From contig JAOTVS010000004.1 of assembly GCA_029863275.1 (NCBI GenBank), positions 1 to 64,000 on the forward strand: a DNA stretch of 64,000 bases. The letters are read 5' to 3'. Below, piece by piece: positions 10,817-32,102 of the stretch. Source of the stretch: Candidatus Nitrosopumilus sp. (GTDB lineage Archaea; Thermoproteota; Nitrososphaeria; Nitrososphaerales; Nitrosopumilaceae). The first letter of the stretch is position 1, and every line of letters starts with the position of its first letter. A program made the position numbers and the translations under genes. The notes below the pieces were generated by a model. It did not search any database and was not told the DNA's origin. It saw only the letters and a program-made list of their open reading frames with translations.

Positions 10817-13255
10817 CTAAGTTATTGAACCACCAAATTTAATCCAAACAGAACTTCCTGATTTTACAGTAATATTGTAACTGGTAAAATCAATGTCCAG
10901 AGTAACTCCTGGGGGAATAGTAAGCCTAGAATTATTTTGAATCAGTACATTTTCTGGAGCCGAAGCACTAGAGCCAAGATGACAATCATGTTCTACAATC
11001 CAAATTCCTGGTCCTGTTGGGGCACATGTTTCAATTTGAGTTATTATTTTAAGTAAATCATTTGTTCCATCAAAATAGCTTATTATTGGAAAATTATTCT
11101 TTGTCATGGCAATGGATGTGTAAAATCCCACATTACCCGCACTATCCAAAGTCACTGGCGTATCTTGGGTAGAACACGAAGGACTAGTACAGTGAACAAT
11201 CTTAAGATCACCATTTGTAAAATCATAATAACTAATTATTGGATTGCCGTCATTACCAATTGCAATGGATGTATACTCTCCCACATCACCTGCACTATCC
11301 AAAGTCACTGGCGTATCTTGTGTAGAACACGAAGGACTAGTACAGTGCACAACTTTGAGGTCACCATTTAGAAGATCATAATAACTAATTATTGGATTGC
11401 CGTCTTTACCAATTGTACTGGACAAGTAAAACCCATCATCGCCTGCACTATCCAAAACTACTGGCGTATCTTGAGTAGAACACGAAGGACTAGTACAGTG
11501 AACAATTTTAAGATCACCATTTGTAAAATCATAATAACTAATTATTGGATTGCCGTCACTACTAATTGCAATGGATGTATAAAACCCCACATCCCCTGCA
11601 CTATCCAAAGTCACTGGCGTATCTTGAGTAGAACACGAAGGACTAGTACAGTGCACAATCTTAAGATCACCATTTGTAAAATCATAATAACTAATTATTG
11701 GATTGCCGTCACTACTAATTGCAATGGATGTATACTCTCCCACATCACCTGCACTATCCAAAGTCACTGGTGTATCTTGAGTAGAACACGAAGGACTAGT
11801 ACAGTGCACAAATTTAAGATCAGTATTTGAAAGATCATAATAACTAATTATTGGATTGCCGTCATTGTCAATTGCAATGGATGTATAATTTCCCACATCC
11901 CCTGCACTATCCAAAGTCACTGGCGTATCTTGTGTAGAACACGAAGGACTAGTACAGTGCACAACTTTAAGATTGTCATTTGTAAAATCATAATAACTAA
12001 TTATTGGATTGCCGTCATTACCAATTGCAATGGATGTATAAAACCCCACATCACCTGCACTATCTAAAATTAATCCCTCACCCCACGGATTATCAAATAA
12101 ATTACACGAGGGACTAGTACAGTGCACAATCTTAAGATCACCATTTGAAAGATCATAATAACTAATTATTGGATTGCCGTCACTACCAATTGCAATGGAT
12201 GTATAAAACCCCACATCACCTGCACTATCCAAAGTCACTGGTGTATCTTGAGTAGAACACGAGGGACTAGTACAGTGCACAACTTTAAGATCATCAGTTG
12301 CACTATCAAAATAACTAATTATTGGATTGTCATCATTGCTAATTGCAATTGATGTGTAAAAACCAATATCACCTGCACTATCCAAAGTCACTGGTGTATC
12401 TTGATTAGAACACGAAGGACTAGTACAGTGAACAATCTTAAGATCATCAGTTGCACTATCAATATAACTAATTATTGGATTGCCGTCACTACCAATTGCA
12501 ATGGATGTATAAAACCCCACATCACCTGCACTATCCAAAGTCACTGGTGTATCTTGAGTAGAACACGAAGGACTAGTACAGTGCACAACTTTAAGGTCTA
12601 CATTGTTGTTATCAATATAACTAATTATTGGATTGCCGTCATTACCAATTGCAATGGATGTATACTCTCCCACATCACCTGCACTATCCAAAGTCACTGG
12701 CGTATCTTGTGTAGAACACGAAGGACTAGTACAGTGCACAATCTTAAGATCATCAGTTGCACTATCAAAATAACTAATTATTGGATTGCCGTCACTACCA
12801 ATTGCAATGGATGTATACTCTCCCACATCCCCTGCACTATCCAAAGTCACTGGCGTATCTTGTGTAGAACACGAAGGACTAGTACAGTGCACAATCTTAA
12901 GATCACCATTTGAAAGATCATAATAACTAATTATTGGATTGCCGTCATTACCAATTGCAATGGATGTATACTCTCCCACATTCCCTGCACTATCCAAAAC
13001 TACTGGTGTATCTTGAGTAGAACACGAAGGACTAGTACAGTGCACAACTTTAAGATCCTCATTTATAAAATCATAATAACTAATTATTGGATTGCCGTCT
13101 TTACCAATTGCAATGGATGTATACTCTCCCACAAGTCCTGCACTATCTAAAACCGTAGCCATATCTGCTATTACATAGTTGGTCTCTATGCTAATTGAAA
13201 CCAGAAAAAGAAATAAAATTACAAATAAAGTATTTGAAATTGATTTATGACTCAA
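10817..13255 (-). CDS. Secreted protein of 14 tandem 51-aa repeats
   Basis: Repeat LDSAGDVGEYTSIAIGNDGNPIISYYDxxNGDLKIVHCTSPSCSTQDTPVT; signal peptide; distinct C-terminal segment. Confidence 0.88.
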   Translation of the reverse strand: MSHKSISNTLFVILFLFLVSISIETNYVIADMATVLDSAGLVGEYTSIAIGKDGNPIISYYDFINEDLKVVHCTSPSCSTQDTPVVLDSAGNVGEYTSIAIGNDGNPIISYYDLSNGDLKIVHCTSPSCSTQDTPVTLDSAGDVGEYTSIAIGSDGNPIISYFDSATDDLKIVHCTSPSCSTQDTPVTLDSAGDVGEYTSIAIGNDGNPIISYIDNNNVDLKVVHCTSPSCSTQDTPVTLDSAGDVGFYTSIAIGSDGNPIISYIDSATDDLKIVHCTSPSCSNQDTPVTLDSAGDIGFYTSIAISNDDNPIISYFDSATDDLKVVHCTSPSCSTQDTPVTLDSAGDVGFYTSIAIGSDGNPIISYYDLSNGDLKIVHCTSPSCNLFDNPWGEGLILDSAGDVGFYTSIAIGNDGNPIISYYDFTNDNLKVVHCTSPSCSTQDTPVTLDSAGDVGNYTSIAIDNDGNPIISYYDLSNTDLKFVHCTSPSCSTQDTPVTLDSAGDVGEYTSIAISSDGNPIISYYDFTNGDLKIVHCTSPSCSTQDTPVTLDSAGDVGFYTSIAISSDGNPIISYYDFTNGDLKIVHCTSPSCSTQDTPVVLDSAGDDGFYLSSTIGKDGNPIISYYDLLNGDLKVVHCTSPSCSTQDTPVTLDSAGDVGEYTSIAIGNDGNPIISYYDFTNGDLKIVHCTSPSCSTQDTPVTLDSAGNVGFYTSIAMTKNNFPIISYFDGTNDLLKIITQIETCAPTGPGIWIVEHDCHLGSSASAPENVLIQNNSRLTIPPGVTLDIDFTSYNITVKSGSSVWIKFGGSIT
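11090..13160 (-). repeat. Tandem DNA repeat, 153-bp period, about 14 units, inside the repeat-protein gene
   Basis: E.g. 'actatccaaagtcactggcg' at 11141 and again at 11294 (153 bp apart), near-identical units through the region. Confidence 0.9.
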
Positions 13256-13900: not shown

Positions 13901-14728
13901 TCACTTTTTCTTTTTAACACCAACTGTATCAATTGGCTTTGCTGATTTCCATAGCATTCTGCATAGGCTATCTATATTATTAATCATATCTTTTGCATTA
14001 GTTGATAATGAAAAATCATTCTCAGAATTAGAATTTGTTTGACTAGAATCTGACATTATCATATGTTTATCTTTTTGCACTGTAATTCTTCCATTAGATG
14101 GAAGTTTACAAACTCTGGTTTCAGTTGCACCAAATCTTTTTACAAATGAAAGCATTTCGACATCGTTGACTTCAACTAGAAGCATAACTTTACCTCCATT
14201 TTTTTCACAGGTTTTAATTTTTTCTGGGATCATACTATGATACATCTTTGAGATATCCTCAAGAGTTGTTGCAATGTATAATACATCTGTACAATTTTCA
14301 ATTAATTGTCCGATATCAGAATAAATATTTGTCCTTCCTTGGATAATTTTTAGTGTTGGAATATTCGTAGTCTGATTAGTTGAGATTTCATTATTTATTT
14401 TATCAATAATTGCCTCTCCGGAAAGTTTTATTTTTCTTAATTCTTCCTCTTTCCTTTCTAATGCAGTCTTTAATGCTTTTTGTGGTTCTATTGCGATACA
14501 TAATTTGGGACTAGATAAAGTAGTTGAAATAATATTTCTATCGACTAGTTTATCTACAGTTCTGTACATTCTTGCTCTATCAATATTTAGATCTTTAGCA
14601 AGTGCACTAGCCGTGATTGGTCCAGTTCTTAATAAACTCAGATAGATTTTTGATTCCAAATCATCAAGATCCAGGGTTCCTCTTAATTCTAAGGCAAGTT
14701 TTTCAACTTGTTCTTGTGCTGACATCAA
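13901..14728 (-). CDS. TrmB-family transcriptional regulator (actual ATG probably 14725)
   Basis: LDDLESKIYLSLLRTGPITASALAKDLNIDRARMYRTVDKLVDRNII winged HTH. Confidence 0.85.
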   Translation of the reverse strand: MMSAQEQVEKLALELRGTLDLDDLESKIYLSLLRTGPITASALAKDLNIDRARMYRTVDKLVDRNIISTTLSSPKLCIAIEPQKALKTALERKEEELRKIKLSGEAIIDKINNEISTNQTTNIPTLKIIQGRTNIYSDIGQLIENCTDVLYIATTLEDISKMYHSMIPEKIKTCEKNGGKVMLLVEVNDVEMLSFVKRFGATETRVCKLPSNGRITVQKDKHMIMSDSSQTNSNSENDFSLSTNAKDMINNIDSLCRMLWKSAKPIDTVGVKKKK

Positions 14729-14950: not shown

Positions 14951-15898
14951 CTAGACCACATTAAATGCAATTACTGCAAGGACGATCATTACAACAACGT
15001 GTTTAATTCCCGCAACATATGATCCGGCACCTATCTTTCCTGCCGCTAGACCGCCAAAAACTGCCTCAATAAGGGACATGTTAAACAAGGCAGCCTCCAT
15101 TAAAGCAATATCCATACTTGCCAGGGATCCGAACAATCCGCCTTCAGATGCCCCTCCTCCCGAAATCAGACTTTCTTGAACTTTTTCAATTTCTGTGAAA
15201 AAACTAGTTATCAACAAAACTGCTACTGCCAAAAATACTGCATAAGAAATGTAAATTGTATATGTATATGGGGCTAATTGTGACTTTCTATTTTTTTCAA
15301 TATTCTGCATCTCTGTAACATGTTTTTGAATCATGTCTAAGTTCTCATCGATGTCGCCTCCAATCTTTAAGGCCATCTCTAAAAGCACTGTCACACGTCT
15401 TGAAATCTTGGTGTTAGTTGAATCTGCAAAATGTGCAAATGCCTCATCCATTGGCATTCCCCAACTCATATTTGCTCTAAGATTTCTCAATGGAATAGTT
15501 AATCCTCCAAGATTCCTATTTGCAGTCTGCTCTATTGCTTTGATAAGATTAGCTCCACTTTGAACAGAGCTTAACAATGCTAAAAGAAAAACTGGCATAT
15601 GTTTATCAATACTGTCTCTTCGCTGAACCTCTTTTAATTGAAACAGCGTCATTGGAACAATTCCTGCAATGACTCCAAAAATCAATCCAATTTCTTTGAT
15701 TGATGATGATCCTGAAAAAGATCCTAGCAATTGTGTAGACATAATGACACTTAATGAAGCAACAATGGAGATTATTATCAACCTGACTTTATTGTTTCCT
15801 AAAATTGATTTGCTGGGAGTTAATCCTTTTATGAGTTTTTTTTCTAATCTCTTTGAATTTTTTCTTACAGATTTTTTAGTTCCTTTTTCTAGAGCCAT
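14951..15898 (-). CDS. Type II/IV secretion system platform protein (TadC/T2SF domain)
   Basis: Multi-TM; HMPVFLLALLSSVQSGANLIKAIEQTANR...NLRANMSWGMPMDEAFAHFA T2SF-like pattern. Confidence 0.85.
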   Translation of the reverse strand: MALEKGTKKSVRKNSKRLEKKLIKGLTPSKSILGNNKVRLIIISIVASLSVIMSTQLLGSFSGSSSIKEIGLIFGVIAGIVPMTLFQLKEVQRRDSIDKHMPVFLLALLSSVQSGANLIKAIEQTANRNLGGLTIPLRNLRANMSWGMPMDEAFAHFADSTNTKISRRVTVLLEMALKIGGDIDENLDMIQKHVTEMQNIEKNRKSQLAPYTYTIYISYAVFLAVAVLLITSFFTEIEKVQESLISGGGASEGGLFGSLASMDIALMEAALFNMSLIEAVFGGLAAGKIGAGSYVAGIKHVVVMIVLAVIAFNVV

Positions 15899-15902
15899 AT
15901 TT

Positions 15903-16823
15903 TTACCTCTTTGGTACCATCCCGTCCATCATTACAAGCATCATTACACCACATAGGGGCAAAATGGCAAAAGTTAGAATATTAATCAAAGTTACTAAAT
16001 CCAGTCCCCCTAAACTAGGACTCATAATTCCCATTATTGAGAGCATTATTACTGCAAGTAATGGAAATACAATCAAAAGAATTGTATAAATTTCTGCAAC
16101 TGCTCCAAGTGATTCTGTAGTTCTTGCCATTAGTTGCTTTTTTTCTTCTAATTGGACTTTGGCGGTTGCGTTAAAGTATTCTTTAAGATCCCCTCCGGAT
16201 TGGGCTGTGATTATTGCCCCTTCTAATAATTCTGAATAAGCTCCATGTGGGGTTCTATGAATAAGATCAGTAATTGCTGTAATCAAGTCCATTCCCATAA
16301 TATCCAAATTTCTAACAATGAGCTTGGAATCTTTTACAATCTCTTCTTCTGACTCTTCTCTTGCAATTGCCTTGAATATTCCCTCCAAACTCAATCCACT
16401 TGTAGCCAAGGTAGACATGTATCCAATAAAGTGAGGAATCTCCTCCATGAGCTTTGAAGACCTTGTTTTTACCTTCATTGATGGAATCATTTGCAACACT
16501 ACAAACACCATTCCACCAAAACCAAATGCCGCACCAATGGGTATGAGAATCTCTAGTATTGGTGGTTCAATATCAACTAATAATGCTACAATGATTCCAA
16601 TAACTCCTCCAGCAATGGTTGATACTAGACTAAATAATGCCATACTTGCAACATATACTTCGTAAGGGATTGGCATCATTGACTCTTTGATTGCTTTTTC
16701 TACATGTCTGAATTTTGGATGTAGAAATTTAACGTGCTCATCTAAAAGTTTGTATGCGTATATGTGGGCCGGACCTACCTTTTCACTTTCCAACACTCTT
16801 TTTTTACGTTTTACAGTGCTCAT
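15903..16823 (-). CDS. Type II/IV secretion system platform protein (TadB/C-like, second copy)
   Basis: EEIPHFIGYMSTLATSGLSLEGIFKAIAREE T2SF-like; adjacent to the ATPase. Confidence 0.85.
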   Translation of the reverse strand: MSTVKRKKRVLESEKVGPAHIYAYKLLDEHVKFLHPKFRHVEKAIKESMMPIPYEVYVASMALFSLVSTIAGGVIGIIVALLVDIEPPILEILIPIGAAFGFGGMVFVVLQMIPSMKVKTRSSKLMEEIPHFIGYMSTLATSGLSLEGIFKAIAREESEEEIVKDSKLIVRNLDIMGMDLITAITDLIHRTPHGAYSELLEGAIITAQSGGDLKEYFNATAKVQLEEKKQLMARTTESLGAVAEIYTILLIVFPLLAVIMLSIMGIMSPSLGGLDLVTLINILTFAILPLCGVMMLVMMDGMVPKR

Positions 16824-16824
16824 A

Positions 16825-18456
16825 CTAAATCATCACCCTTTTTCTTTCATAAAATCTCTCAGGATCTTCGTAGTATTCCATTATCATTTCGCTTACTTTT
16901 CTGTGCTCCCGGATGTCATTTTTTACCATCCATTCCAAGGCTACTCTTCTTTTAGTTAATTCATAATCAATTTTTTCTTGAGAATCCCCGTCTCTATCCA
17001 TTATTTTTTCAAACACTACGCTCTTTCCACTAAAGTCATGAGAATCTGTTCTGGGATTCCACTTGAAGACTGTATTTGTTTTTAACTCTCCTGTTTTTTC
17101 ATCAATTCCATCCAGCTCTGCAACTTCGATAATTCTTCTAGCCGATTTGCTACCTACGCGAATTTTTAATTGAAGTGTAATCAGGTCTAAACTATTTGCA
17201 ATCAATGCTTTTGGAACATCCATCGGTGCAGATACTAATCTAGTTAGTGTGGCATCAATCGAATCCGCATGTATTGAGGAAAATCCTCCGTGCCCTGTTG
17301 CCATTGCCTGAAATAGAGTATATGCTTCTTTACCTCTGGTTTCACCTACGATAATAATATCTGGTCGCTGTCTTAGTGCTGCACGGAGCAGGTCAAACTG
17401 ATTAATTTCACCTACCTGTGTATCTGTAAAAGTTTGTCTCGATACTGCAGGAACCCAATTCTCATGTGGTAAGTTTAGTTCTTGGGTATCTTCTATGCTG
17501 ACCACCTTTTGTCCTGGTTTGATAAATGTAGATAATGCATTTAATGCCGTAGTCTTTCCACTGGCAGTTCCTCCAGCAATAAGCATTGTGGATTTTTTTT
17601 CTGCAAGATACCACATAAAGGCTGCAATATCAATTGAACATGTTCCAAATTTTATCAAATCTATTATTGTAATTGGATCTGCTCTGAATCTTCTAATTGT
17701 AAAAGTACTTCCCCGTTTAGTAATCTCATGCCCTAATGTTAAATTTATTCTACTTCCATCTGGAAGTGTTGCATCAACAATTGGATCTGCCATTGAAACG
17801 TGCTTTCCACAAACATATGCGAGTTTTCTTGCAAAATTATTTAATTCAGCATCTTTTTGATATATGATATTTGTTGGAAGTGATTCATATTCTCGGTGCC
17901 ACACATATAGGGGAATATTCGTTCCATCGCAACTAATTTCCTCAATCATATGGTCTCTCATAAGAGGCTCTATTTTTCCAAGGTGGATGTAATCTCGAAT
18001 GGCATAATATTTTATTTTCGCAATATTTTTTTCTGGAATTTTAAGTCTGTATGTCTTGATCAACCTATCAATTTTCTTAGAAAGTCGGTACTCCGCTTCC
18101 TTTTTTGATCTAATTTCCCCCATGGCTACTGACAATTCAGTCATTAGAAGTTTTTTTATAATCCCTAACGCTTGCTCATCTTTCATGGTAAGGGCTGGTT
18201 CAATAATTTGATATCTTATCCCTCCCTTGGCAGTTGGGTCTTTGATTAAACCGGCTCTAACATCAAATCTGTCAAAATCTAATTTTGCAAGTGTCATAAA
18301 TTGAGGAATAGATTGAACGTTTGAGACTACATGCTGTTCAAGAGAATTTGGACTAGAATTATTTTCTGAATTAATTTCTTTTGTAGGGAATTTTACTGCT
18401 GCGCGTCTGATAAGTTTTGGAATATCTATCTTGCTCTTGAGAATATTTAGATTCAT
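16825..18456 (-). CDS. Type IV filament assembly/secretion ATPase (TadA/VirB11-like)
   Basis: Walker A AGGTASGKTTALNAL, IRRFRADPITI, RQRPDIIIVGETRGKEAYTLFQAMATGHGGFSSIHADS. Confidence 0.95.
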   Translation of the reverse strand: MNLNILKSKIDIPKLIRRAAVKFPTKEINSENNSSPNSLEQHVVSNVQSIPQFMTLAKLDFDRFDVRAGLIKDPTAKGGIRYQIIEPALTMKDEQALGIIKKLLMTELSVAMGEIRSKKEAEYRLSKKIDRLIKTYRLKIPEKNIAKIKYYAIRDYIHLGKIEPLMRDHMIEEISCDGTNIPLYVWHREYESLPTNIIYQKDAELNNFARKLAYVCGKHVSMADPIVDATLPDGSRINLTLGHEITKRGSTFTIRRFRADPITIIDLIKFGTCSIDIAAFMWYLAEKKSTMLIAGGTASGKTTALNALSTFIKPGQKVVSIEDTQELNLPHENWVPAVSRQTFTDTQVGEINQFDLLRAALRQRPDIIIVGETRGKEAYTLFQAMATGHGGFSSIHADSIDATLTRLVSAPMDVPKALIANSLDLITLQLKIRVGSKSARRIIEVAELDGIDEKTGELKTNTVFKWNPRTDSHDFSGKSVVFEKIMDRDGDSQEKIDYELTKRRVALEWMVKNDIREHRKVSEMIMEYYEDPERFYERKRVMI

Positions 18457-18591
18457 ATGAATAAACTATATTCGTCATTTGTGTTTTAACGCTTGTTCGT
18501 CCAATTGAACAACCTACATCTTTTACATGCAAATATGAATAAAAATTACTATGATATTTGACCTTGAGAAGAATTTAGGAGGCAATTTTTA

Positions 18592-19854
18592 ATGTTTGGA
18601 AAAATTAGTAAAAAAAACCTCGAAAAATTATCAAACATGACTAATCTTAAACCAAAAAATGATATTTCTTCTATTCTTGAAGAATCTCCTGAGAAAAACA
18701 TTACTTCGATAAAATCATCTCTGATAAATTTTTCCAAAATAAATAACTCAAAATCTAAAACCGTCTCAGAGGCAAATGCTAAATCCCCTAGTATATCAGA
18801 AAAACCTTTACAGCAACTAGAACCTGATTCTAAAACCCTTAATGTCCAGAGTCTCCAATCCAAACCCATTGTTACAGAGTCCAGCAAAATGGGAGATCTC
18901 TCTCAACGTCTTCTTTTAGAGATTGAAAAATTACCTGATAAAACCATAAAACCAATCATTGATTATAATGATAATTGTTTATTTTATCCCATTTTATCAA
19001 CAGTTGGTAAACCCACTGATGAAATTTCATATCTTGATGATCTTGTAACTGATGGAACTTTAGTAAAAGAAACTCTCGAAAAATTAATCATATGTCCTGT
19101 TCATCGTGATGCTTTTTCTTCTAGCGTAAAACTATATTGCCCAAAATGTAATTCACTAAACGTTGAAAAACTAAATCTGTTTGAGCACAAGAGATGTGGA
19201 TTTATTACAGAAAATCTTGCATATGATTTTTCAGATCCAAATAATTCTACATGCCCTTCATGTAAAAGAGCGATTAAAGATTTTAAAAAAGAAATTCGAA
19301 TTCCAGCAATGTGGCACCAATGTCTTGATTGTAAAGATAAATTTGATAACGCAATAATAAAGATGTACTGCAGACAACACGAGCATGATTTTGATATAAA
19401 CTCTGGTCAATTTGTTACTACGTATAGGTACAAAATTAAAGATTATGATGCTCCCTTAAGCGTTGAAGATACAAAAATGCGAGAAGACTTAGCTAAAATC
19501 CTAGATGGGTTTAATTTTTCATCTCAAATCAAGGCTTCAGTTAAAGGCAAAAGTGGAAACCCTCACAAAGTTCCAATATTTGCAAAAAACAACTCAAACG
19601 GGGATACGATTGCAGTTTTTATTAATAATTCTGAAATAGTATCCCAATCCGATATCAATTCAATCTTGGTTCCAATTTTAGATATTAGCCCAAAACATAC
19701 TGTACTACTCTCATTCTCTGAGGTTGACCAAGGCGTAAAACCTGTAGCAAAACAATATGGAATTCAAATTATTGCTAATCCTGATATTTCTAAAATGACT
19801 GACGCAGTTAGCGAATTTATTTCTGCAAATTACTCTATAAATGGTGAAAAATAA
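18592..19854 (+). CDS. Cysteine-rich (zinc-ribbon-like) protein, first gene of the pilin operon
   Basis: 420 aa; multiple CxxC/CxxH motifs (CPVH, CPKC, CPSC, CLDC); stop overlaps the next start. Confidence 0.7.
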   Translation: MFGKISKKNLEKLSNMTNLKPKNDISSILEESPEKNITSIKSSLINFSKINNSKSKTVSEANAKSPSISEKPLQQLEPDSKTLNVQSLQSKPIVTESSKMGDLSQRLLLEIEKLPDKTIKPIIDYNDNCLFYPILSTVGKPTDEISYLDDLVTDGTLVKETLEKLIICPVHRDAFSSSVKLYCPKCNSLNVEKLNLFEHKRCGFITENLAYDFSDPNNSTCPSCKRAIKDFKKEIRIPAMWHQCLDCKDKFDNAIIKMYCRQHEHDFDINSGQFVTTYRYKIKDYDAPLSVEDTKMREDLAKILDGFNFSSQIKASVKGKSGNPHKVPIFAKNNSNGDTIAVFINNSEIVSQSDINSILVPILDISPKHTVLLSFSEVDQGVKPVAKQYGIQIIANPDISKMTDAVSEFISANYSINGEK

Positions 19855-20372
19855 TGCCTCCTAAATCTAAAAAATTCTCGATGAAAAATCGTCGTGGAGT
19901 TAGCAATATTATTGGAAGTCTTATAGTTCTGGCAGTAGTAGCATCTATGGGTTCTGTAATTTTATTTCAAGGATTAAATCAAATTAATGCTTTTAGTTAT
20001 GAATTGACGTATCATGACAAGGAACATGTTAATGAACTCCGAGAAGACATTATTTTTGAACATGTAAGGTTTCCACCAACTGAAAAAAATCTAGAACTTG
20101 ATCTTGCAAATGTCGGAAGTGTTGATACTACAATTTCCACAGTCACTGTTGTAAGAATTGACAATCAGGAACTTATCATAAACAAGGAGGTTAGTAATGA
20201 TACTATTCTAATTGAAGATCACAAGAAAATAATTCTAACAACCGCTACCTTACCAATCGGTCCTGATCCAATATGGAACTCTACTGAATATAAGGATAAA
20301 ATTTACAAGATATCGATTACCACATCCAAAGGAAATTTCTTTTCAACTATCGCCACTCCCTTTAACACTTGA
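19854..20372 (+). CDS. Archaeal type IV prepilin-like protein
   Basis: N-term KNRRGVSNIIGSLIVLAVVASMGSVILFQ class III signal-like. Confidence 0.75.
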   Translation: MPPKSKKFSMKNRRGVSNIIGSLIVLAVVASMGSVILFQGLNQINAFSYELTYHDKEHVNELREDIIFEHVRFPPTEKNLELDLANVGSVDTTISTVTVVRIDNQELIINKEVSNDTILIEDHKKIILTTATLPIGPDPIWNSTEYKDKIYKISITTSKGNFFSTIATPFNT

Positions 20373-20375
20373 GAT

Positions 20376-21080
20376 ATGAAACAAAATAATTTAAAATCAA
20401 ATATTCAAAGACATGTCCCTAAGAGACGAGCAGTAGCTGAGGTTATTTCTTCATTATTGTTAGTAGTAATTACAGTTGTAGGTGCAGTTTTGCTTACAGG
20501 TTTTATGGATGAGTCAATGGTTGAAGGGAGTTTAGCTGTTTCATCTAGTGCAGATTCCACAATCAAAACGATCAAGCTCAAATCATTTGACACGAGAGAC
20601 GGATTAAAGTTGATGGGTTATGATGATTTAGATAATGACACCCCGACTGATTTAAAATTATGTGGTGTTGGTTGTAATTCCACTTCAAACCAGCATCCTA
20701 GGATTGGAGGGACGGAATTTTTAGTTATTCAAATTGAAAATAGAAGTTTGAATCCAATTTACTTGGAAAGTTTGTACTTGGAAAACAATCTATATCTTTG
20801 GGATGTTAATACATCTGGAGTAGTTCTTAATGCAATTCCTGGTACCTCTGCTGGGGGTGTGTATCCAAGAGATGGAATGTTTTCAATCTTATCTGATGAT
20901 ATTTCTGATAAAACTCAAAACACCAATACCCAAATTCAAAATGGCAGGATAGTTAACATACTCATAAAACTTGCCCCAGACCATCCAGATATTGAACTAA
21001 GTAAAACCAATAGAGTTCAATTAAATATTGGTGCAAATACTTTATCCGAGTTTTTGATTGAGACTGGAGGGGCCCAATGA
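20376..21080 (+). CDS. Archaeal type IV prepilin-like protein
   Basis: PKRRAVAEVISSLLLVVITVVGAVLLTGF N-terminus. Confidence 0.78.
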   Translation: MKQNNLKSNIQRHVPKRRAVAEVISSLLLVVITVVGAVLLTGFMDESMVEGSLAVSSSADSTIKTIKLKSFDTRDGLKLMGYDDLDNDTPTDLKLCGVGCNSTSNQHPRIGGTEFLVIQIENRSLNPIYLESLYLENNLYLWDVNTSGVVLNAIPGTSAGGVYPRDGMFSILSDDISDKTQNTNTQIQNGRIVNILIKLAPDHPDIELSKTNRVQLNIGANTLSEFLIETGGAQ

Positions 21081-23002
21081 ACTTTAAATCTAGTCGATTT
21101 ACGCCTAAAAAACGACGTGGACTTTCCTCTATAGTAGGTGCCTTGCTTTTTGTAGTACTTATGGTCTCTACATTCACTGTACTAGGTCAGGCCTTAGATT
21201 CTCAAACTGAAATTGTCAGTGTTAGTCGAGCAGTTGCAGATTCAGGATTGAAAAAACAACAAGAAGATTTTAGAATAAATGCCTTTACTGATAATGGCAA
21301 TCCTAATGCATTGCTTTCTGTAGATGTTGAAAATCTGGGACAAAACTCTTTGGAGATATTTAGTATGATAATTACTGAAGAGACTGATATTAATGGAATT
21401 TATCCATCAACAGTTTATGACATTCCATCAGATAAATCCTTTATTGCTCCAGGAAAAACAAACAACATTGTATCTGCACCAACGGTCATTACTTTAGCAG
21501 TTCCAACAGGATTGGAACTAACCAAAGTTTATACAATAAAGGTAATTTCCTCACTTGGAAATATTAGCACTGATAGTATTCTATGTGATCAAACTAGCTG
21601 TATGCCTGCAGTTGCAGGTCCAGGAGACGGAAGTTTAACTTCTACAGTATTTTTAGATGGTCCAAATGGAATTAACGGAAAAATATCTACCTTTGTAATG
21701 TTTGTCTCAAATACTTCTGACCTAACTATTACTGATGTACAACCTGTTTTTGGGTGGACGGCGCCAATCTGTGATGATATGTGGACCAATGATGATACAG
21801 GACAAACTGAAAATAAGGTTGATCCAGAAACAATGACACTTTGCAATGTTACTCCAGGCCCCGTCCCTCAAATAGATTTAGGTCCTTATGCTTCTGTTTT
21901 ATTCAAGTGGGATATGGTAGTTAATGGTGATATTGGATCAACTTTTACCCTATGCAACTCTGTGACTGGAGATGATGGGACTCCTCCTATCATAACTAGT
22001 GTGCAGACTTGTGATATGCTGACGATGATTGATCCTAATGATTGTGGAGGATGCGGTCCTGGTGGTACTACTATTATTTTAGTAGATGATCTTTTGATAA
22101 GACCTGAATTATTTTTGACCCTTCCAGGTCCATTTGGGGATTCCTCTTCACAAGGTATTTGGGGAGTAAATGTTGTAAACCCTACAACAAGGGATATGCA
22201 AATAACCAAATTGACTCTAGTGGCATATCCGCCAGGAGCTAACAATAATGACAAAGTTTTCATTGATGGTTGCCCATTTACTGCAATTACCCCTACTACT
22301 AATTGGTCATGTCCAAGAGAAAACACTTTGATGTGGGTAAATCCTACAGGTCCGTTAACTATTCCATCTCATTCCAGTGTTGCATTTGCAGCAAAAGTTG
22401 AGCCAGGATCTATAGCAGGAGCAGAAGATCTTGATGCAATTATTGTACAGGCAAACGCATTTACGACATCGGGTTCCTTTGGAAAAGCGGGATATCAGAG
22501 TTCCATGCTTGGCTCAACTGGAACAATTGCCAATGTCTTTCTTACAGACACGGCATTATCTCGAACGGATATTAAAACTCAAAAATTAGCAATGACTGAA
22601 TTAATTCCTCAGTCATTTAAAGTGACTTTAGCTGATATGGATGATAGTAATGCTACTTACATTAAATCCGGAGCAAGATTGGTCATCAATGTTCCAAGGG
22701 ACTGGACTGATGTTATCATAACAAGCTCAAATAATTTTGTAGCTGATGGGGATCCTGGCCCTGATGATGACAGAATTACAGCGCATGCAGATGGTTCTAC
22801 TCAAATAGTTGCAGTTACAGCCTCACATTTAGGTCAGGCAGCTGATGCATACACAATAGAATTTGATGCAACACCTCCTGCAAATGCTGATGCTGCTCCT
22901 GAAATACTGTATGTTATGTATGTTCTAGCTGATGGTTTGACTGATGATGATCTTCCAATTGGACCATTAAGTGAGGTAGTCTTGCAAGTTTTGCACCCAT
23001 AA
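21077..23002 (+). CDS. Large prepilin-like surface protein (641 aa)
   Basis: KKRRGLSSIVGALLFVVLMVSTFTVLGQ N-terminus with long extracellular-like region; ATGA overlap with upstream gene. Confidence 0.75.
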   Translation: MNFKSSRFTPKKRRGLSSIVGALLFVVLMVSTFTVLGQALDSQTEIVSVSRAVADSGLKKQQEDFRINAFTDNGNPNALLSVDVENLGQNSLEIFSMIITEETDINGIYPSTVYDIPSDKSFIAPGKTNNIVSAPTVITLAVPTGLELTKVYTIKVISSLGNISTDSILCDQTSCMPAVAGPGDGSLTSTVFLDGPNGINGKISTFVMFVSNTSDLTITDVQPVFGWTAPICDDMWTNDDTGQTENKVDPETMTLCNVTPGPVPQIDLGPYASVLFKWDMVVNGDIGSTFTLCNSVTGDDGTPPIITSVQTCDMLTMIDPNDCGGCGPGGTTIILVDDLLIRPELFLTLPGPFGDSSSQGIWGVNVVNPTTRDMQITKLTLVAYPPGANNNDKVFIDGCPFTAITPTTNWSCPRENTLMWVNPTGPLTIPSHSSVAFAAKVEPGSIAGAEDLDAIIVQANAFTTSGSFGKAGYQSSMLGSTGTIANVFLTDTALSRTDIKTQKLAMTELIPQSFKVTLADMDDSNATYIKSGARLVINVPRDWTDVIITSSNNFVADGDPGPDDDRITAHADGSTQIVAVTASHLGQAADAYTIEFDATPPANADAAPEILYVMYVLADGLTDDDLPIGPLSEVVLQVLHP

Positions 23003-23474
23003 GTTTGAAAAAATACCACAATCAAAATCTTATTGATAAAACCAATCATTATTTTTTCTTATTTGAATTTTTACATTTTAGAAAATACTTTAATTTTTAT
23101 ATTGCGACCAACTTTTTTTTCGTAAATTTATTATGGCTTTACCACTTTACAATACACAAAAAATATCTGCATAGTTTGAAAAACCTTCTATTAATCGAAA
23201 CAAAATTTTTATGAAATATAGTTTAACTTCTTTTTTAATTCATCTGTGATTTGATGTTAGAATTTTTAACACTCATGCCTAGCCCTAAAAAATTACCTTC
23301 TATTAAAACATGTGTAGAATTTTTCTCCACGCTTTTTCATTATTTTTCTAATGTCTCTACGATAACAAAATTGTGCCTATAAAGTGTAGTTCATTATGCA
23401 CACAGACAGCTATAACTCTAAATTCATTTCATGTAATTTTAATAATGACAAAGTTACACACAAAACAAAAACAA

Positions 23475-24092
23475 ATGACCTCAAGAAGAGCAGTTGCACC
23501 AGTCATTGCAACACTCTTACTGGTAGCTATCGCTGTCGTTGGTGGAAGTATCATCTTTGTGTTCTCACAAGATTTCTTTAGTTCTGCCCAAATCAGTGGT
23601 GCTCCACAAATCGAATCAGTAGAAATTACTGGTTATGATGCATCAGATGTGTTAACGTTGAAAATCCATGATGGACTTTGTACAAACAACTGCGCATTCG
23701 CAACCGCTTGGGACGGCCTAGCAAATAACGGACTAGTCACAGGTGAAAGAGTCGCAGTATATGTCCAAAACCAAAGTGCTCAAAAAGTTGTATTAACTGA
23801 AGTAGCATTCGCAGGAACAACATACGCATATGATTCTTCTGGAACAAATGTAATCCATTCAGCAGCAGCTCCTGCACCAGGTGAATTCCAAATACTCACC
23901 AGCGGTGTAAGTGGTGCAGTTGCACTGGTAAAAAGTGATCCAGTAGCTGCCTTGGAAGCCGGTGAAGAAGCAACTATCTTATTTGAATTAGATAGTGGTT
24001 TATCTAACGGCAGAGATGCACAGTTTAAGATAAAGACTGCCACAGGCGCAATATTTGTCGGAACTGTACTAGCAGGTCAGCAAAGTGGTTAA
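23475..24092 (+). CDS. Archaellin/type IV pilin-like protein (ORF track start 23373; 23445 or 23475 more likely)
   Basis: MTSRRAVAPVIATLLLVAIAVVGGSIIFVFSQDF class III signal peptide at the second in-frame ATG. Confidence 0.82.
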   Translation: MTSRRAVAPVIATLLLVAIAVVGGSIIFVFSQDFFSSAQISGAPQIESVEITGYDASDVLTLKIHDGLCTNNCAFATAWDGLANNGLVTGERVAVYVQNQSAQKVVLTEVAFAGTTYAYDSSGTNVIHSAAAPAPGEFQILTSGVSGAVALVKSDPVAALEAGEEATILFELDSGLSNGRDAQFKIKTATGAIFVGTVLAGQQSG

Positions 24093-24109
24093 CCCCACCC
24101 CTTTTTTTT

Positions 24110-26938
24110 ATGGAGAAAAAAATGAAAAATAAAATTAAAACAAAAAACATAACACTAGTACTCATATTATCATTGTCCTTACTTTTGAGTGGAAATCTTC
24201 AAGCAGTTTCTGCTCAAAACTTGGATCAATATTCTAATTACAAAGTCCACATTTCAATTAATCCTTCTCATATAGAAGAAGGCTCAAAATCTCATCCAAT
24301 AGGATATGTGTATCTATTAAATCGATCAAATATTCCAGTTACCAATCCTATGACTGTAGATGTAATGTTGACCTCAGATAATCCTTCAATTGCTTCAGTT
24401 CCAGAAAAAATTACCTTTCCTGCAAATGCCGAATATGTACAATTTGATATAACTACTGGCAAAAAGGGAAAAACCACAATCACCGGTTCAATTAATAACA
24501 ATTTAGGATTTGCTGATATCAACGTCGGAGTAAATGCAGAACATCTTCCAGATAATTTGATTTTAGAATTAAATCTTCCAACAGACAAAATGCATGTTAA
24601 TTCTGAAATGCCATTTTCAGTTTTTTTAAGAACGATTGATGAAACTGATGATGACATTGATGACTCTACAATTGTTAGAGTACCATATGATATAGATGTG
24701 ATTTTAGATTATGAGAAATCCCTTGCAATCCCAAGTAATGATACAATCACAATTAAAGCAGGAGAGTTTTATGCTTGGGGAACTATAAGCTCTGGCCAAA
24801 AAGTGGGCAATACGTTTATTCGTGCAATCCAACCTGATACTCAACTTGATACTGCAAAGAGCATAACTATAACATCTACTCTTCCTGCATCTTTGAATAT
24901 CAATATCTATCCATACTTGATACCCGCCGATATTGATAGAACTCTGGATATTTTTGTAAGTGTTGTTGATTCAAATGGAGATCCTACTGTTGCGTCAAAA
25001 GATATTCCCTTGAAATTTTTCTCAAACAATCAAGATTACATTGGTGATGAATTAGATGATGCAATGAAAGAACTAGATATGGTAATAAAGAAAGGCGAAT
25101 TTGGATATCACTTTAGGTTAGGTTTGGATTTAATTGGTTTGGTTAGCAACGATCTTTTTATTGGTGTTAGCTCTACTGGACTAGGAACTGCTATTGATAA
25201 GTTTCAAACCGTTGGAGAATCAATAAGTGTTGAAGATCAGCGAATAAATACCCAAGGGGGATTGTTAAAATCAGATAGGATTGTTAATATTAATGATAAA
25301 AAGGCAGTGCAACTTTTTGGTCCACTAAAAGTACCTAGTAACTCTACAGTTTTGTTTGGATATCAACTTACCATTGAAGAAAACGATGATAATGATAATC
25401 CAGATGATGATCCAAATTTCAAAGAAGTAAATTTGGATGATATCATAGAAAAAGATCAAAGCGCCGAGGAAAAAAGACGAGGAGGAATGAATGCTCAAGA
25501 TAGGGCAGGAAGCGGTGATGTTGAGCCAGAAAATACTGGTACTGCAACTGGTAATACTGAATCTAGTTCTGATGATGATAGTGATGTACTAATTTACACT
25601 ATAGATAATATTGAAGATGGCAACTTGTATCCAATTCAAGCAAATGAAAATTACCGTTCAACAGGATTAATTCAGTATTTAGATGTAATTTCTGAGGATG
25701 ATTCATTAGCAACTGTTACAGATGTTGGAATGATTCGCCCATCGTATTCTTATGGGGTAGCTGAAGTTGTTACCACTCAAAAAAGTGGGACGGTATTGCT
25801 TTCTGCTAACGTGAAGGGTATTGGTTCGGGGTCTTTTCTAACCGAAGTTGTAAACTCTCTTGAGCAAAAAAAGATAAAAATATTTTCTCCTACAGGAGAG
25901 AACTCTCTTTTAATTAATCGGGATGGTTCCTTTGATGTATTCCTAGTTGCACTTGATGCAAGTGATAGGCCAAAAATACTTGAAGATGATAAAAAATACT
26001 TGGTTACCCCTTCTAACGGAATTGTTGACCTTGAAAGAAAATCAACATTTTCAACTACAACATTACAAAGTGAATCATTTACACTAGAAGATGGCGGAGC
26101 TGTGGTCCTCAAAGTCACACCAATTGGAGAAGATGCCGATTTGGATTTAGAATCAACTAGTATTTTTCAGACACAATTGTCATCCGAAGTCCAAATATTA
26201 CTCCCAGTAGAAAACCTTGATATCAATACGAAAGAAAAATTTGGTATTGTTCAATTAGTTGATCTTCAAGGAAATCCTATTGAAGCATTCAAAGACATGC
26301 GAGTAAAAATCAGTTCAGATAATGAATTTGTAGCTCAAACAAATCAAGATGCAATAATAAAAAAAGGTTCATCTTATGCTGAATTTCCAATAGAAACACC
26401 GGGAACTCTTGGATCCTCAATCCTCTCTGCCAGTGCAAGGGGAGTTGTAGGATCCGATGTTGAAGTAAAAACAGTTACCTCCTCATCGGCTTTAACTATC
26501 TATACTAGTGGATTAGTTGAGCCAATGCCTGTAAATGAAGAAGTTCTAGTTAAGATAATTGTAGATGATGTAAATGGTATTTCAATTCCAGGTGCAACCG
26601 TACAAATAACTCCAAATGTAAATGCAACTGCAAATACTGAATCCATTAGAACTGGAACCGATGGAAGTGCTACATTTGGTCTTACTGCAGTAAACGGGCC
26701 AGAAATATTCGTTGACTTTAAGGCATCTGCTCCAGGATTCCAAGATAGCAAGGAAACAATAGGAATTGTAGTTGATACACCTCCAGGAGGATTAACTGAG
26801 CTTAAGCTTCCTACAGAATTAATTTATGTGATAGTTGGTGGAATGGGGGTAGTCGCAATAGCAGTGGTATTTTTCGTGAAAAAATCCAAAGAGCCTATAG
26901 ATGACGAAGAAGAACCATGGGAAGATGACGACATTTAA
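24110..26938 (+). CDS. Large membrane-anchored surface protein with Ig-like domains
   Basis: Signal peptide (LILSLSLLLSGNLQAVSAQ), C-terminal TM LIYVIVGGMGVVAIAVVFFVKKSKE with acidic tail. Confidence 0.8.
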   Translation: MEKKMKNKIKTKNITLVLILSLSLLLSGNLQAVSAQNLDQYSNYKVHISINPSHIEEGSKSHPIGYVYLLNRSNIPVTNPMTVDVMLTSDNPSIASVPEKITFPANAEYVQFDITTGKKGKTTITGSINNNLGFADINVGVNAEHLPDNLILELNLPTDKMHVNSEMPFSVFLRTIDETDDDIDDSTIVRVPYDIDVILDYEKSLAIPSNDTITIKAGEFYAWGTISSGQKVGNTFIRAIQPDTQLDTAKSITITSTLPASLNINIYPYLIPADIDRTLDIFVSVVDSNGDPTVASKDIPLKFFSNNQDYIGDELDDAMKELDMVIKKGEFGYHFRLGLDLIGLVSNDLFIGVSSTGLGTAIDKFQTVGESISVEDQRINTQGGLLKSDRIVNINDKKAVQLFGPLKVPSNSTVLFGYQLTIEENDDNDNPDDDPNFKEVNLDDIIEKDQSAEEKRRGGMNAQDRAGSGDVEPENTGTATGNTESSSDDDSDVLIYTIDNIEDGNLYPIQANENYRSTGLIQYLDVISEDDSLATVTDVGMIRPSYSYGVAEVVTTQKSGTVLLSANVKGIGSGSFLTEVVNSLEQKKIKIFSPTGENSLLINRDGSFDVFLVALDASDRPKILEDDKKYLVTPSNGIVDLERKSTFSTTTLQSESFTLEDGGAVVLKVTPIGEDADLDLESTSIFQTQLSSEVQILLPVENLDINTKEKFGIVQLVDLQGNPIEAFKDMRVKISSDNEFVAQTNQDAIIKKGSSYAEFPIETPGTLGSSILSASARGVVGSDVEVKTVTSSSALTIYTSGLVEPMPVNEEVLVKIIVDDVNGISIPGATVQITPNVNATANTESIRTGTDGSATFGLTAVNGPEIFVDFKASAPGFQDSKETIGIVVDTPPGGLTELKLPTELIYVIVGGMGVVAIAVVFFVKKSKEPIDDEEEPWEDDDI

Positions 26939-29595: not shown

Positions 29596-30558
29596 ATGAC
29601 AATGGAAGAAGCCTTAATTGAAAACCTAGTTTTAGGAAATGATCATAAGGAATCTCTAAAGAAAATAAATCAAAATTTGATTCAATATGGGCTTACTCCA
29701 AATCAATCAAAAGTCTATCTCTACCTAACAAAAACTGGCGAAAAGACTGCATCTACAATTTCAAAAAGTCTCAATATTCCAAGAACTGAATCTTATCATT
29801 TGCTAAATTCACTTGAACAAAAAGGAATTATTTTTTCCATTTTTGGAAAACCCACCAAATTTAATTCAGTTCCTATACAAGAGGCTTTGACTATAATTAT
29901 TGATAATGAAAAAAATAGAATTGCTGATCTTGAACTTAAAAAAGAGAAAATATTGACTCTCTGGGAAACTATTCCAAAACATGTAGATGAATCAGAAAAA
30001 GTCGATGGAAACAAGTTCCAGATTCTTCAAGGAAGAAACTCAATCTTGGTAAAAATTGAACGTATGGTAAAAATTTCAAAAAAGGAAGTATTGGTATTAG
30101 GTTCTGATACTAATTTTATTAAATTTTATCACACAGAGTTTGTGAGTTTACTAAAAAAGACCAAATCTGATCTTCAGGTACTTACAACTTATCCTAAAAA
30201 AGGATTATTTTCTTTGGATGGTTTGCCACTGAGTCAAATCAAAAAATTAGATGAGAGTAACAGGCATAATTTTTCATTTATAATAAAAGATGATGATGAG
30301 GTGATATTTTTTATAAATAGTGGGAGTGCAGAATTAATGGCAATATGGACTGATTCTAAATCCTTTGTATCCACTCTAAAATCCCTATTCAAACTAATTT
30401 GGAGAAAATCTCCATTTGTTTTAGAAAAAGATAACAAATTAACTGAAAATATGAGTGGAGATTATAAACATCGACTCAGAGAAATTGAGCAAGAAAAGGT
30501 CATTTTAGATTATCTCCAACAAAATTTAATGGTATCTAAAGGAGAAAAAAATGAGTAA
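29596..30558 (+). CDS. TrmB-like winged-HTH transcriptional regulator
   Basis: LIQYGLTPNQSKVYLYLTKTGEKTASTISKSLNIPRTESYHLLNSLEQKGII. Confidence 0.85.
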   Translation: MTMEEALIENLVLGNDHKESLKKINQNLIQYGLTPNQSKVYLYLTKTGEKTASTISKSLNIPRTESYHLLNSLEQKGIIFSIFGKPTKFNSVPIQEALTIIIDNEKNRIADLELKKEKILTLWETIPKHVDESEKVDGNKFQILQGRNSILVKIERMVKISKKEVLVLGSDTNFIKFYHTEFVSLLKKTKSDLQVLTTYPKKGLFSLDGLPLSQIKKLDESNRHNFSFIIKDDDEVIFFINSGSAELMAIWTDSKSFVSTLKSLFKLIWRKSPFVLEKDNKLTENMSGDYKHRLREIEQEKVILDYLQQNLMVSKGEKNE

Positions 30559-30955
30559 AACCCTTTCTAAAACAAAGAATCAAAAATCTCGATTAAATAT
30601 TCTAATCATTGATGATAATGAACAGATAACAAAATTAATTTCATCATTTCTTGATATGAGTAATCATGATTGCACTGTCGTAAATGATGGTAAAGAAGGG
30701 CTAGAACTAATCAAAACTAATCAATTTGATTCCATAATACTTGATCTTGCCATGCCAGAGTTTGACGGATATGAAATTATCGATGCGATTCAAAAAGAAG
30801 ATCCATTACAAATGCATAAAATAATAATATTAACTGCATCTAGCATATCTATTGACATTATTCAAAAATTCAAAAATTTAGGAGTCTCTGCTTGTCTGCA
30901 AAAACCAATTGACATTGATCAACTATTGTCTAGTATTACTGACATTGCAACTTAA
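30551..30955 (+). CDS. Response regulator receiver (CheY-like)
   Basis: ILIIDDNEQI, IILDLAMPEFDGYEII, LTASS, LQKPID. Confidence 0.92.
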   Translation: MSKTLSKTKNQKSRLNILIIDDNEQITKLISSFLDMSNHDCTVVNDGKEGLELIKTNQFDSIILDLAMPEFDGYEIIDAIQKEDPLQMHKIIILTASSISIDIIQKFKNLGVSACLQKPIDIDQLLSSITDIAT

Positions 30956-30971
30956 TTTATTTTGAAAACAA

Positions 30972-32102
30972 ATGTTTAAGATCAAACAAGCACTTTTTTT
31001 GATATTTGGTATTACTAGCTTTATTATATTCTATATAGGATTTTTAAATTACCTTAAAACCCAAGATTCCAATATGGGTTTATTGATTTTACTTTTTTCG
31101 GTGATTGTTTCTGTTGGTACACTCCTTGCAACGTTTCATGTTTCAAAAAATCTCACAAAACCTATAGAAACTTTGGTACAAAGAATGCAAGATTTTTCTC
31201 AAACTAACATTGTTACTCCAAACCCTTGTGATGATGGTGGGATTCAAGAATTACATATACTTCATAAAAATTTTGAAGAGATGGCAAACAAGGTAGGAGA
31301 GACATTGAAAAAAGAAAAACAACTTAACATAAAATTAAAAGAAATAGATACTAGGAAAACTGAATTTATGTCTATGATTTCTCATGAATTAAAAACTCCT
31401 ATCATGCCAATCATGGGGTATATTCAATTATTAAAAAAAGAAGAATTGATGGGAGAATTGAATGAAAAACAAATGAATGCATTAAACGAAATTGCTATTT
31501 CAACTGAAAGATTACAAAAAATAATTCAGGATATTTTAACTGCTCAAAAAATTGATCTTGGAAAGTTATCTTCTGAAAAGGAAAACGTGCAGTCTAGAGT
31601 TTTAGTTGAAAATGCATATAGAGCATTTTACCCTTATTGCAAAAATAAAGATGTGCAATTAACTATGCTATTAGATACAAATGATAATGTTTACTCTGAT
31701 CCTGATAGGGTATCTCAAGTTTTTTCAAACTTGATTTCAAATGCGTTGGCTTTTTTACCTGAAAAAAATGGTACAATCAAAATTGGAACTCTAAATAATA
31801 GTGATGAAAATGTAACTTTTTATGTTCAAGATAATGGAATTGGCATTTCAGATGACCAGCAAAAAAATATCTTTAAAAAATTTTATCAAGTTGATACCTC
31901 ATCAAAAAGAAAAAAGGAAGGAAGTGGTCTGGGGCTCTCCATTTGTGAGGGAATAATCAAAAATCTAGGAGGGAGAATGTGGGTCAAAAGCACATTAAAT
32001 CAAGGTACTACATTCTTTTTTGACTTGCCTAAAGCTCAAGTTCCAGTTGACCATTTAGATTCTCTAGACAAACCTTCACACTCAAATCACTTGGCAAGCT
32101 GA
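30972..32102 (+). CDS. Membrane sensor histidine kinase
   Basis: Two TM, SHELKTPIMPIMGYIQLL H-box, DNGIGISDDQQKNIFKKFYQ, GSGLGLSICEGII. Confidence 0.93.
   Translation: MFKIKQALFLIFGITSFIIFYIGFLNYLKTQDSNMGLLILLFSVIVSVGTLLATFHVSKNLTKPIETLVQRMQDFSQTNIVTPNPCDDGGIQELHILHKNFEEMANKVGETLKKEKQLNIKLKEIDTRKTEFMSMISHELKTPIMPIMGYIQLLKKEELMGELNEKQMNALNEIAISTERLQKIIQDILTAQKIDLGKLSSEKENVQSRVLVENAYRAFYPYCKNKDVQLTMLLDTNDNVYSDPDRVSQVFSNLISNALAFLPEKNGTIKIGTLNNSDENVTFYVQDNGIGISDDQQKNIFKKFYQVDTSSKRKKEGSGLGLSICEGIIKNLGGRMWVKSTLNQGTTFFFDLPKAQVPVDHLDSLDKPSHSNHLAS

What the first reader, a model, noticed from the sequence alone, without database searches (positions are those of the whole stretch)
14951..26938. Archaeal type IV filament locus with two separate platform proteins (Tad/Epd-like architecture)
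Minus-strand block: one VirB11/TadA-like ATPase and two consecutive T2SF-like platform genes. Plus-strand block: a Cys-rich protein and four prepilin-like genes. Archaella and most archaeal pili use a single platform protein; paired TadB/TadC-like genes are typical of Tad and Epd-like systems. No archaellum accessory genes or prepilin peptidase are visible here. This could be an uncharacterised adhesion or secretion filament.
Basis: partly seen in the sequence, partly recalled or inferred. Interest (0 to 1): 0.68.

Follow-up and report, generated by a model that had tools for sequence, protein, structure and literature searches.

The report
Archaeal pilus with split platform protein
This ammonia-oxidizing archaeon carries a near-complete, widely shared gene set for a type IV pilus (a hair-like surface filament) whose membrane base is made as two half-proteins instead of one; pili of this kind were already catalogued, so it is a good but mostly ordinary example.

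Summary
The block holds a secretion ATPase (I), two platform genes (J1, J2), the Zn-ribbon protein TackOD1, four class III prepilins and an Ig-like surface protein. J1 matches the N-terminal half and J2 the C-terminal half of the ordinary single archaeal platform, in the same order (I-J1-J2), so they are one platform split in two, not Tad-like paralogues. The ATPase groups with a broad set of split-platform archaeal pili (Bathyarchaeia, Asgard, Thermoplasmatota), near the archaellum and AfGspE2, far from Tad. It is not an archaellum: the genome has no archaellin hit, and four relatives carry both this locus and a separate archaellum ATPase. The only prepilin peptidase found is on another contig beside a second, fused-platform pilus. 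Published surveys already note two tadC-like genes in "Clade 2" archaeal pili with a few Thaumarchaea, the TackOD1 family in thaumarchaeal pilus loci, and adhesion-like pili in these archaea. What I add: the split is near-universal in this ATPase group; TackOD1 is linked to it in Nitrososphaeria and Bathyarchaeia; the TackOD1 protein carries a degenerate restriction-endonuclease-like domain. Epd could not be compared by tree (no references available) but fails on gene content. Most likely an adhesion pilus; function inferred.

The parts
16825..18456 (-). I: filament assembly ATPase (T2SSE/VirB11 superfamily, FlaI/GspE2-like)
   Evidence: T2SSE 5e-43; NCBIfam FlaI 405.6 bits, below its cut-off of 550; best PDB match 2oap, A. 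fulgidus GspE2, 1e-110; tree
15903..16823 (-). J1: platform, N-terminal half
   Evidence: T2SSF 1e-14; matches ArlJ model 6-249/555; hhalign to N-half of fused platforms E 8e-45; about 4 TM
14951..15898 (-). J2: platform, C-terminal half
   Evidence: T2SSF 8e-14; matches ArlJ model 268-541/555; hhalign to C-half E 4e-39; about 4 TM
13901..14728 (-). TrmB-like regulator, conserved next to J2 in Nitrosopumilaceae (possible regulator)
   Evidence: PF01978 3e-13; neighbour of J2 in most Nitrosopumilaceae loci with enough sequence
18592..19854 (+). TackOD1 (arCOG06883-type) cytosolic Zn-ribbon protein with C-terminal restriction-endonuclease-like domain lacking catalytic residues
   Evidence: PF18551 1e-21; model confident from residue 96 on; Foldseek hits AF1548, EndoMS, Can2/Cdn1, MspJI; alignment
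19854..20372 (+). pA: prepilin 1, minor pilin candidate (172 aa)
   Evidence: class III signal ..KNRRGVSNIIGS.., TM 19-37; TIGR02537
20376..21080 (+). pB: prepilin 2, paralogue of pD
   Evidence: TIGR02537 over cut-off; aligned with pD
21077..23002 (+). pC: long prepilin 3 (641 aa), ArlF-like N-terminus; tip/minor pilin candidate
   Evidence: ArlF model E 2.8e-4; TIGR02537; long prepilins recur in Nitrosopumilaceae and Bathyarchaeia
23445..24092 (+). pD: prepilin 4, candidate major pilin, likely its own transcription unit with the next gene
   Evidence: TIGR02537 best in genome; model has long helix and beta headgroup, top 18 PDB matches are archaeal filament or FlaF/FlaG proteins; ~440-bp gap upstream
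24110..26938 (+). Big: secreted Ig-like S-layer/adhesin-like protein with C-terminal TM
   Evidence: Big_1 E 1.5e-4, below its cut-off; N-terminal signal segment and TM 905-923; starts 17 bp after pD

Best explanation
An assembly locus, complete except for the peptidase, for a surface type IV pilus of the broad archaeal group called Clade 2 by Makarova et al. 2016. SHOWN by sequence: ATPase, split platform, four prepilins, one peptidase elsewhere in the genome. INFERRED: the peptidase on contig C95 removes the class III leaders of pA-pD; J1 and J2 assemble side by side and do the work of one two-domain platform; the hexameric ATPase I drives insertion of pilins, pD as main subunit, pA, pB and pC as base or tip subunits; the Ig-like protein anchors or decorates the pilus at the S-layer; TackOD1 and TrmB act in the cytosol as regulators or couplers. 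No retraction ATPase was seen, so assembly rather than twitching is expected. Likely role: attachment to surfaces or cells.
For: Domains and coordinates. J1/J2 as two halves in original order. Split order I-N-C beside 94 of the ATPases examined, archaella fused or single. ATPase trees: window inside the split-platform set; S. acidocaldarius FlaI falls in the separate archaellum clade (100/100), AfGspE2 in the same larger group (99/99), CpaF with Tad. Relatives G003, G036, G051, G058 have both this ATPase (401-417 bits) and an archaellum ATPase above the cut-off. pD model matches archaeal pili and archaella. Peptidase at C95. In Ca. Nitrosocaldus (L043) I, J1, J2, TackOD1 and three prepilins lie in one co-oriented run, which links the two divergent blocks. 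Literature: Clade 2 with two tadC-like genes and a few Thaumarchaea (PMC4858521); adhesion-like pili in ammonia-oxidizing archaea (PMC7554672).
Against: Adhesion is inferred from gene content and published proposals only. Filament length and major pilin are untested: pD misses the Pfam Pilin_N cut-off (21.4 vs 25.2). The deep branching of the ATPase tree is not firm: a single split-only clade is neither shown nor rejected (AU p 0.107). Clade 2 membership was not tested against that paper's own sequences. No Epd reference sequence could be obtained.
Confidence: 0.78

Rival explanations
1. A Tad/Epd-type pilus: the two platform genes descend from the same gene fission that produced TadB and TadC.
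For: Two single-T2SSF platform genes next to a VirB11-family ATPase. Denise et al. 2019 report paired platform genes for Tad and Epd (PMC6668835). A single fission for the two split groups found here is not rejected (AU p 0.107).
Against: J1/J2 match TadB/TadC only at E 4e-7 to 2e-11 against 8e-45 and 4e-39 for fused archaeal platforms. ATPase far from CpaF. The order here is N-half then C-half; Denise et al. match TadC to the N-half and TadB to the C-half, and the usual tadA-tadB-tadC order (own knowledge) is the reverse. No TadZ/MinD, secretin, Flp-like short pilin or DUF2341 protein.
Confidence: 0.07
2. A short pseudopilus that works as a protein secretion system rather than a long pilus.
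For: Four prepilins of which one is very long (641 aa); candidate surface cargo (Big) encoded next to the pilins.
Against: pD has its own intergenic region and a full pilin/archaellin-like model. Big has its own N-terminal signal segment and membrane anchor.
Confidence: 0.1
3. A swimming archaellum or part of one.
For: Best NCBIfam hit is FlaI; ArlJ and weak ArlF matches; the archaellum clade falls within the same larger group (99/99).
Against: 405.6 bits against a cut-off of 550; no archaellin hit in the genome; no ArlH or ArlC/D/E gene in the locus; relatives carry a separate archaellum ATPase.
Confidence: 0.02

Closest known systems
Archaeal T4P Clade 2 (PilB3/PilB4 type, Makarova et al. 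2016, PMC4858521)
   Same: ATPase in the same larger group as A. fulgidus GspE2 and a Haloferax pilus ATPase; two tadC-like genes reported for many members; S-layer-like protein; long Ig-like minor pilin; a few Thaumarchaea already listed.
   Different: TackOD1 in the locus; the Haloferax mediterranei plasmid relative (L171) has a fused platform; clade assignment not tested with the paper's own sequences.
Adhesion-like pili of ammonia-oxidizing archaea (Abby et al. 2020, PMC7554672)
   Same: Same organisms; that paper reports four T4P types including two adhesion-like pili.
   Different: Its figure and supplement could not be read, so which of the four types this is remains unconfirmed.
Tad and Epd pili
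   Same: Two separate single-domain platform genes from fission of a two-domain platform.
   Different: ATPase and platform sequence (Tad), gene order and companion genes differ.
Archaellum
   Same: FlaI/ArlJ-like motor parts, pilin-like filament fold.
   Different: No archaellin hit; no accessory genes in the locus; split platform; separate ATPase clade.

Membership tests
Type IV filament superfamily | ATPase, platform, class III prepilins and prepilin peptidase in the genome | tested here: met
   peptidase on C95, not in the locus
Archaeal T4P Clade 2 | ATPase in the Clade 2 branch | tested here: inconclusive
   groups with AfGspE2, a Haloferax pilus and the archaellum (99/99); the paper's own sequences not available
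Archaeal T4P Clade 2 | two tadC-like genes (many members) | tested here: met
Archaeal T4P Clade 2 | PilA-like major pilin | tested here: inconclusive
   pD Pilin_N 21.4 vs cut-off 25.2; fold matches archaeal filaments
Archaeal T4P Clade 2 | FleN/MinD ATPase (arCOG00589) in the genome | not tested
   none among the genes scanned around the locus; genome not searched
Tad pilus | TadA-family ATPase | tested here: not met
   TIGR03819 163.8 bits against cut-off 373; tree
Tad pilus | TadZ, RcpA secretin, Flp pilin, TadE/G nearby | tested here: not met
   none in Pfam scans of locus and flanks
Epd pilus (Clade 1) | ATPase in Clade 1 | not testable with these tools
   no Methanobacteriota sequence could be fetched
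Epd pilus (Clade 1) | short (~70 aa) pilins; MinD ATPase, DUF2341 proteins and EppA in the locus | tested here: not met
   pilins 172-641 aa; no such domains
Archaellum | ATPase above the FlaI model cut-off, archaellin, single ArlJ | tested here: not met
   405.6 < 550; PF01917 no hit; platform split

The most novel reading that the evidence does not exclude
A platform split into N and C halves is the normal state of a large TACK/Asgard pilus lineage from whose neighbourhood the fused-platform archaellum arose, so platform fission and/or re-fusion happened more than once in archaea; and TackOD1 is a dedicated cytosolic part of this lineage, an inactivated nuclease fold plus Zn ribbons that regulates or couples the motor.
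Probability: 0.3. Interest if true: 0.5.

Novelty: new member of a known kind. Interest (0 to 1): 0.32.

Why it matters
It shows that a two-gene platform is not a mark of Tad/Epd alone, so calling a locus Tad-like from two platform genes is unsafe. It supplies a conserved, widespread marker set (I-J1-J2 plus TackOD1) for probable attachment pili in ammonia-oxidizing archaea and Bathyarchaeia, and a testable hint on what the obscure TackOD1 domain does.

Tried and rejected
Euryarchaeal genomes could not be sampled by phylum, so Epd is untested by tree. J1 against PDB gave only GspF at E 1.5. Tad platforms from three plasmid loci were too few to repeat the N-half/C-half assignment of Denise et al.. 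The idea that one gene fission explains all split platforms was tested and is neither rejected nor shown. The single 'fused' locus counted with TackOD1 is, as I read the coordinates, L168, which has a split-platform ATPase on the same stretch; I did not run this separately. A scan of S. meliloti TadB/TadC failed on coordinates and was not repeated.

Full report
The window is on contig C19 of a 1.76-Mb, 99% complete genome; its nearest relatives in the public genomes are Nitrosopumilus and other Nitrosopumilaceae, that is, ammonia-oxidizing archaea.

Minus strand: ATPase I (16825-18456), J1 (15903-16823), J2 (14951-15898), then a TrmB-like regulator (13901-14728). The three machine genes abut. 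The ATPase hits T2SSE at 5e-43; its best curated model is FlaI at 405.6 bits, below the cut-off of 550. The best solved structure is 2oap (A. fulgidus GspE2, name from own knowledge; 1e-110), ahead of S. acidocaldarius FlaI (1e-79) and CpaF (1e-45).

The platform is split, not duplicated. J1 aligns with residues 6-249 and J2 with 268-541 of the 555-residue ArlJ model. Profile comparison gives J1 to the N-half of fused non-archaellar platforms E 8e-45, J2 to the C-half E 4e-39; against ArlJ 5e-15 and 3e-19; against TadB/TadC 4e-7 to 2e-11. The order I-N-C keeps the order of the halves.

The split is the rule in this ATPase group. Of 80 loci fetched with the ATPase, those with enough sequence nearly all have I, then an N-half gene, then a C-half gene: Nitrosopumilaceae, Nitrosocaldus, Bathyarchaeota, Borrarchaeum, Heimdall/Hodarchaeota, Thermoplasmatota. 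L087 showed no platform in range. Among loci sampled over the phylum by a FlaI model, archaella and many other pili have one fused platform.

ATPase trees. In a quick tree of 119 rows the 54 split I-N-C loci plus two long-branched fused ones form one group (aLRT 100), apart from 12 archaella (100) and Tad. In careful trees the split loci, the archaella, AfGspE2 and a Haloferax pilus form one larger group (99-100% bootstrap where rooted), with the archaella next to the few euryarchaeal-type members; S. acidocaldarius FlaI falls with the archaella at 100/100. A split-only clade is not rejected (AU p 0.107); joining the ammonia-oxidizer ATPases directly to the archaella is not rejected at 5% either (p 0.082). 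The deep order is therefore open. A second, differently laid-out split (C-half, ATPase, N-half) occurs in other loci of the phylum.

Not an archaellum: no archaellin hit in the genome; only two pilus ATPases; four family members carry both this ATPase and one above the archaellum cut-off.

Plus strand: TackOD1, four prepilins, Ig-like protein. The four prepilins are the only TIGR02537 hits of the genome. pA, pB and pC follow TackOD1 without gaps; pD lies after a ~440-bp gap and is followed after 17 bp by Big. The pD model (mean pLDDT 78) has a long N-terminal helix and a beta headgroup; its 18 best PDB matches are archaeal pili, archaella and FlaF/FlaG. In Ca. Nitrosocaldus (L043), I, J1, J2, TackOD1 and three prepilins run in one direction. 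In Bathyarchaeia I-J1-J2 is followed by a short and a long prepilin, with TackOD1 convergent.

TackOD1. It lies near 65 of 80 split loci with enough sequence, against 0 of 11 archaella and one each among fused (26) and unassigned (9) loci; it is missing in the Asgard loci. The counts are not independent, since many loci are close relatives, and the class labels were set by me from the platform layout. The fused-locus case is, by my reading of the coordinates, L168, where a split system lies on the same stretch; the unassigned case, L143, has TackOD1 directly after a divergent pilus ATPase. The AlphaFold model is confident from residue 96 on. Its C-terminal part resembles restriction-endonuclease-like proteins (AF1548, EndoMS, Can2, Cdn1, MspJI; E about 1e-5 to 5e-3). 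In Bathyarchaeia the motif reads GKSG..H.FD...VIDxA, without the catalytic lysine; in Nitrosopumilaceae the aspartate is also gone, so nuclease activity is unlikely. The TM-scores are low because the hit covers only one domain.

Second pilus and peptidase. Contig C95 holds an ATPase, a fused platform, a pilin and an Ig-like protein, with the genome's only Peptidase_A24 hit close by.

Literature. Makarova et al. 2016 state that many Clade 2 euryarchaeal loci have two tadC-like genes, that Clade 2 includes a few Thaumarchaea, and that arCOG06883 double Zn-ribbon proteins occur in thaumarchaeal T4P loci. PMC5847659 named the domain TackOD1, noted it in Bathyarchaeota, and called its function obscure. 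Abby et al. 2020 (PMC7554672) list four T4P types in these archaea, two adhesion-like. Denise et al. 2019 (PMC6668835) described platform fission for Tad and Epd. The locus is therefore a member of a known kind.

Best reading: an adhesion-type archaeal pilus with a split platform. Assembly steps and function are inferred.

Noticed in passing
10817-13255 (-): 812-aa protein with an N-terminal signal-like segment built of about 13 near-identical 153-bp (51-aa) tandem repeats, next to the pilus locus; such arrays can vary in copy number.
   Followed up: partly
L008:9032-19611 (contig C95): Second pilus locus with fused platform, its own ATPase, pilin, Ig-like protein, TrmB-like and response regulators, and the genome's only prepilin peptidase; the 519-aa protein beside the pilin had no Pfam hit.
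   Followed up: partly
L123, L128, L145, L133: Another split platform with a different layout: C-half gene before and N-half gene after the ATPase; in L133 the C-half gene is on the other strand, and in L145 only the N-half was seen.
   Followed up: partly
L143:6235-7152: TackOD1 gene directly after a divergent pilus ATPase outside the split group.
   Followed up: no
L090:1932-6658: Two pilus ATPases in tandem (991 and 586 aa frames) before one split platform.
   Followed up: no
29596-32102: TrmB-like regulator, response regulator and histidine kinase in a row, about 3 kb beyond the locus.
   Followed up: no
L175 (G000:C77:5436-5891): Second TackOD1 gene of the same genome, on a contig without a pilus ATPase hit.
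   Followed up: no
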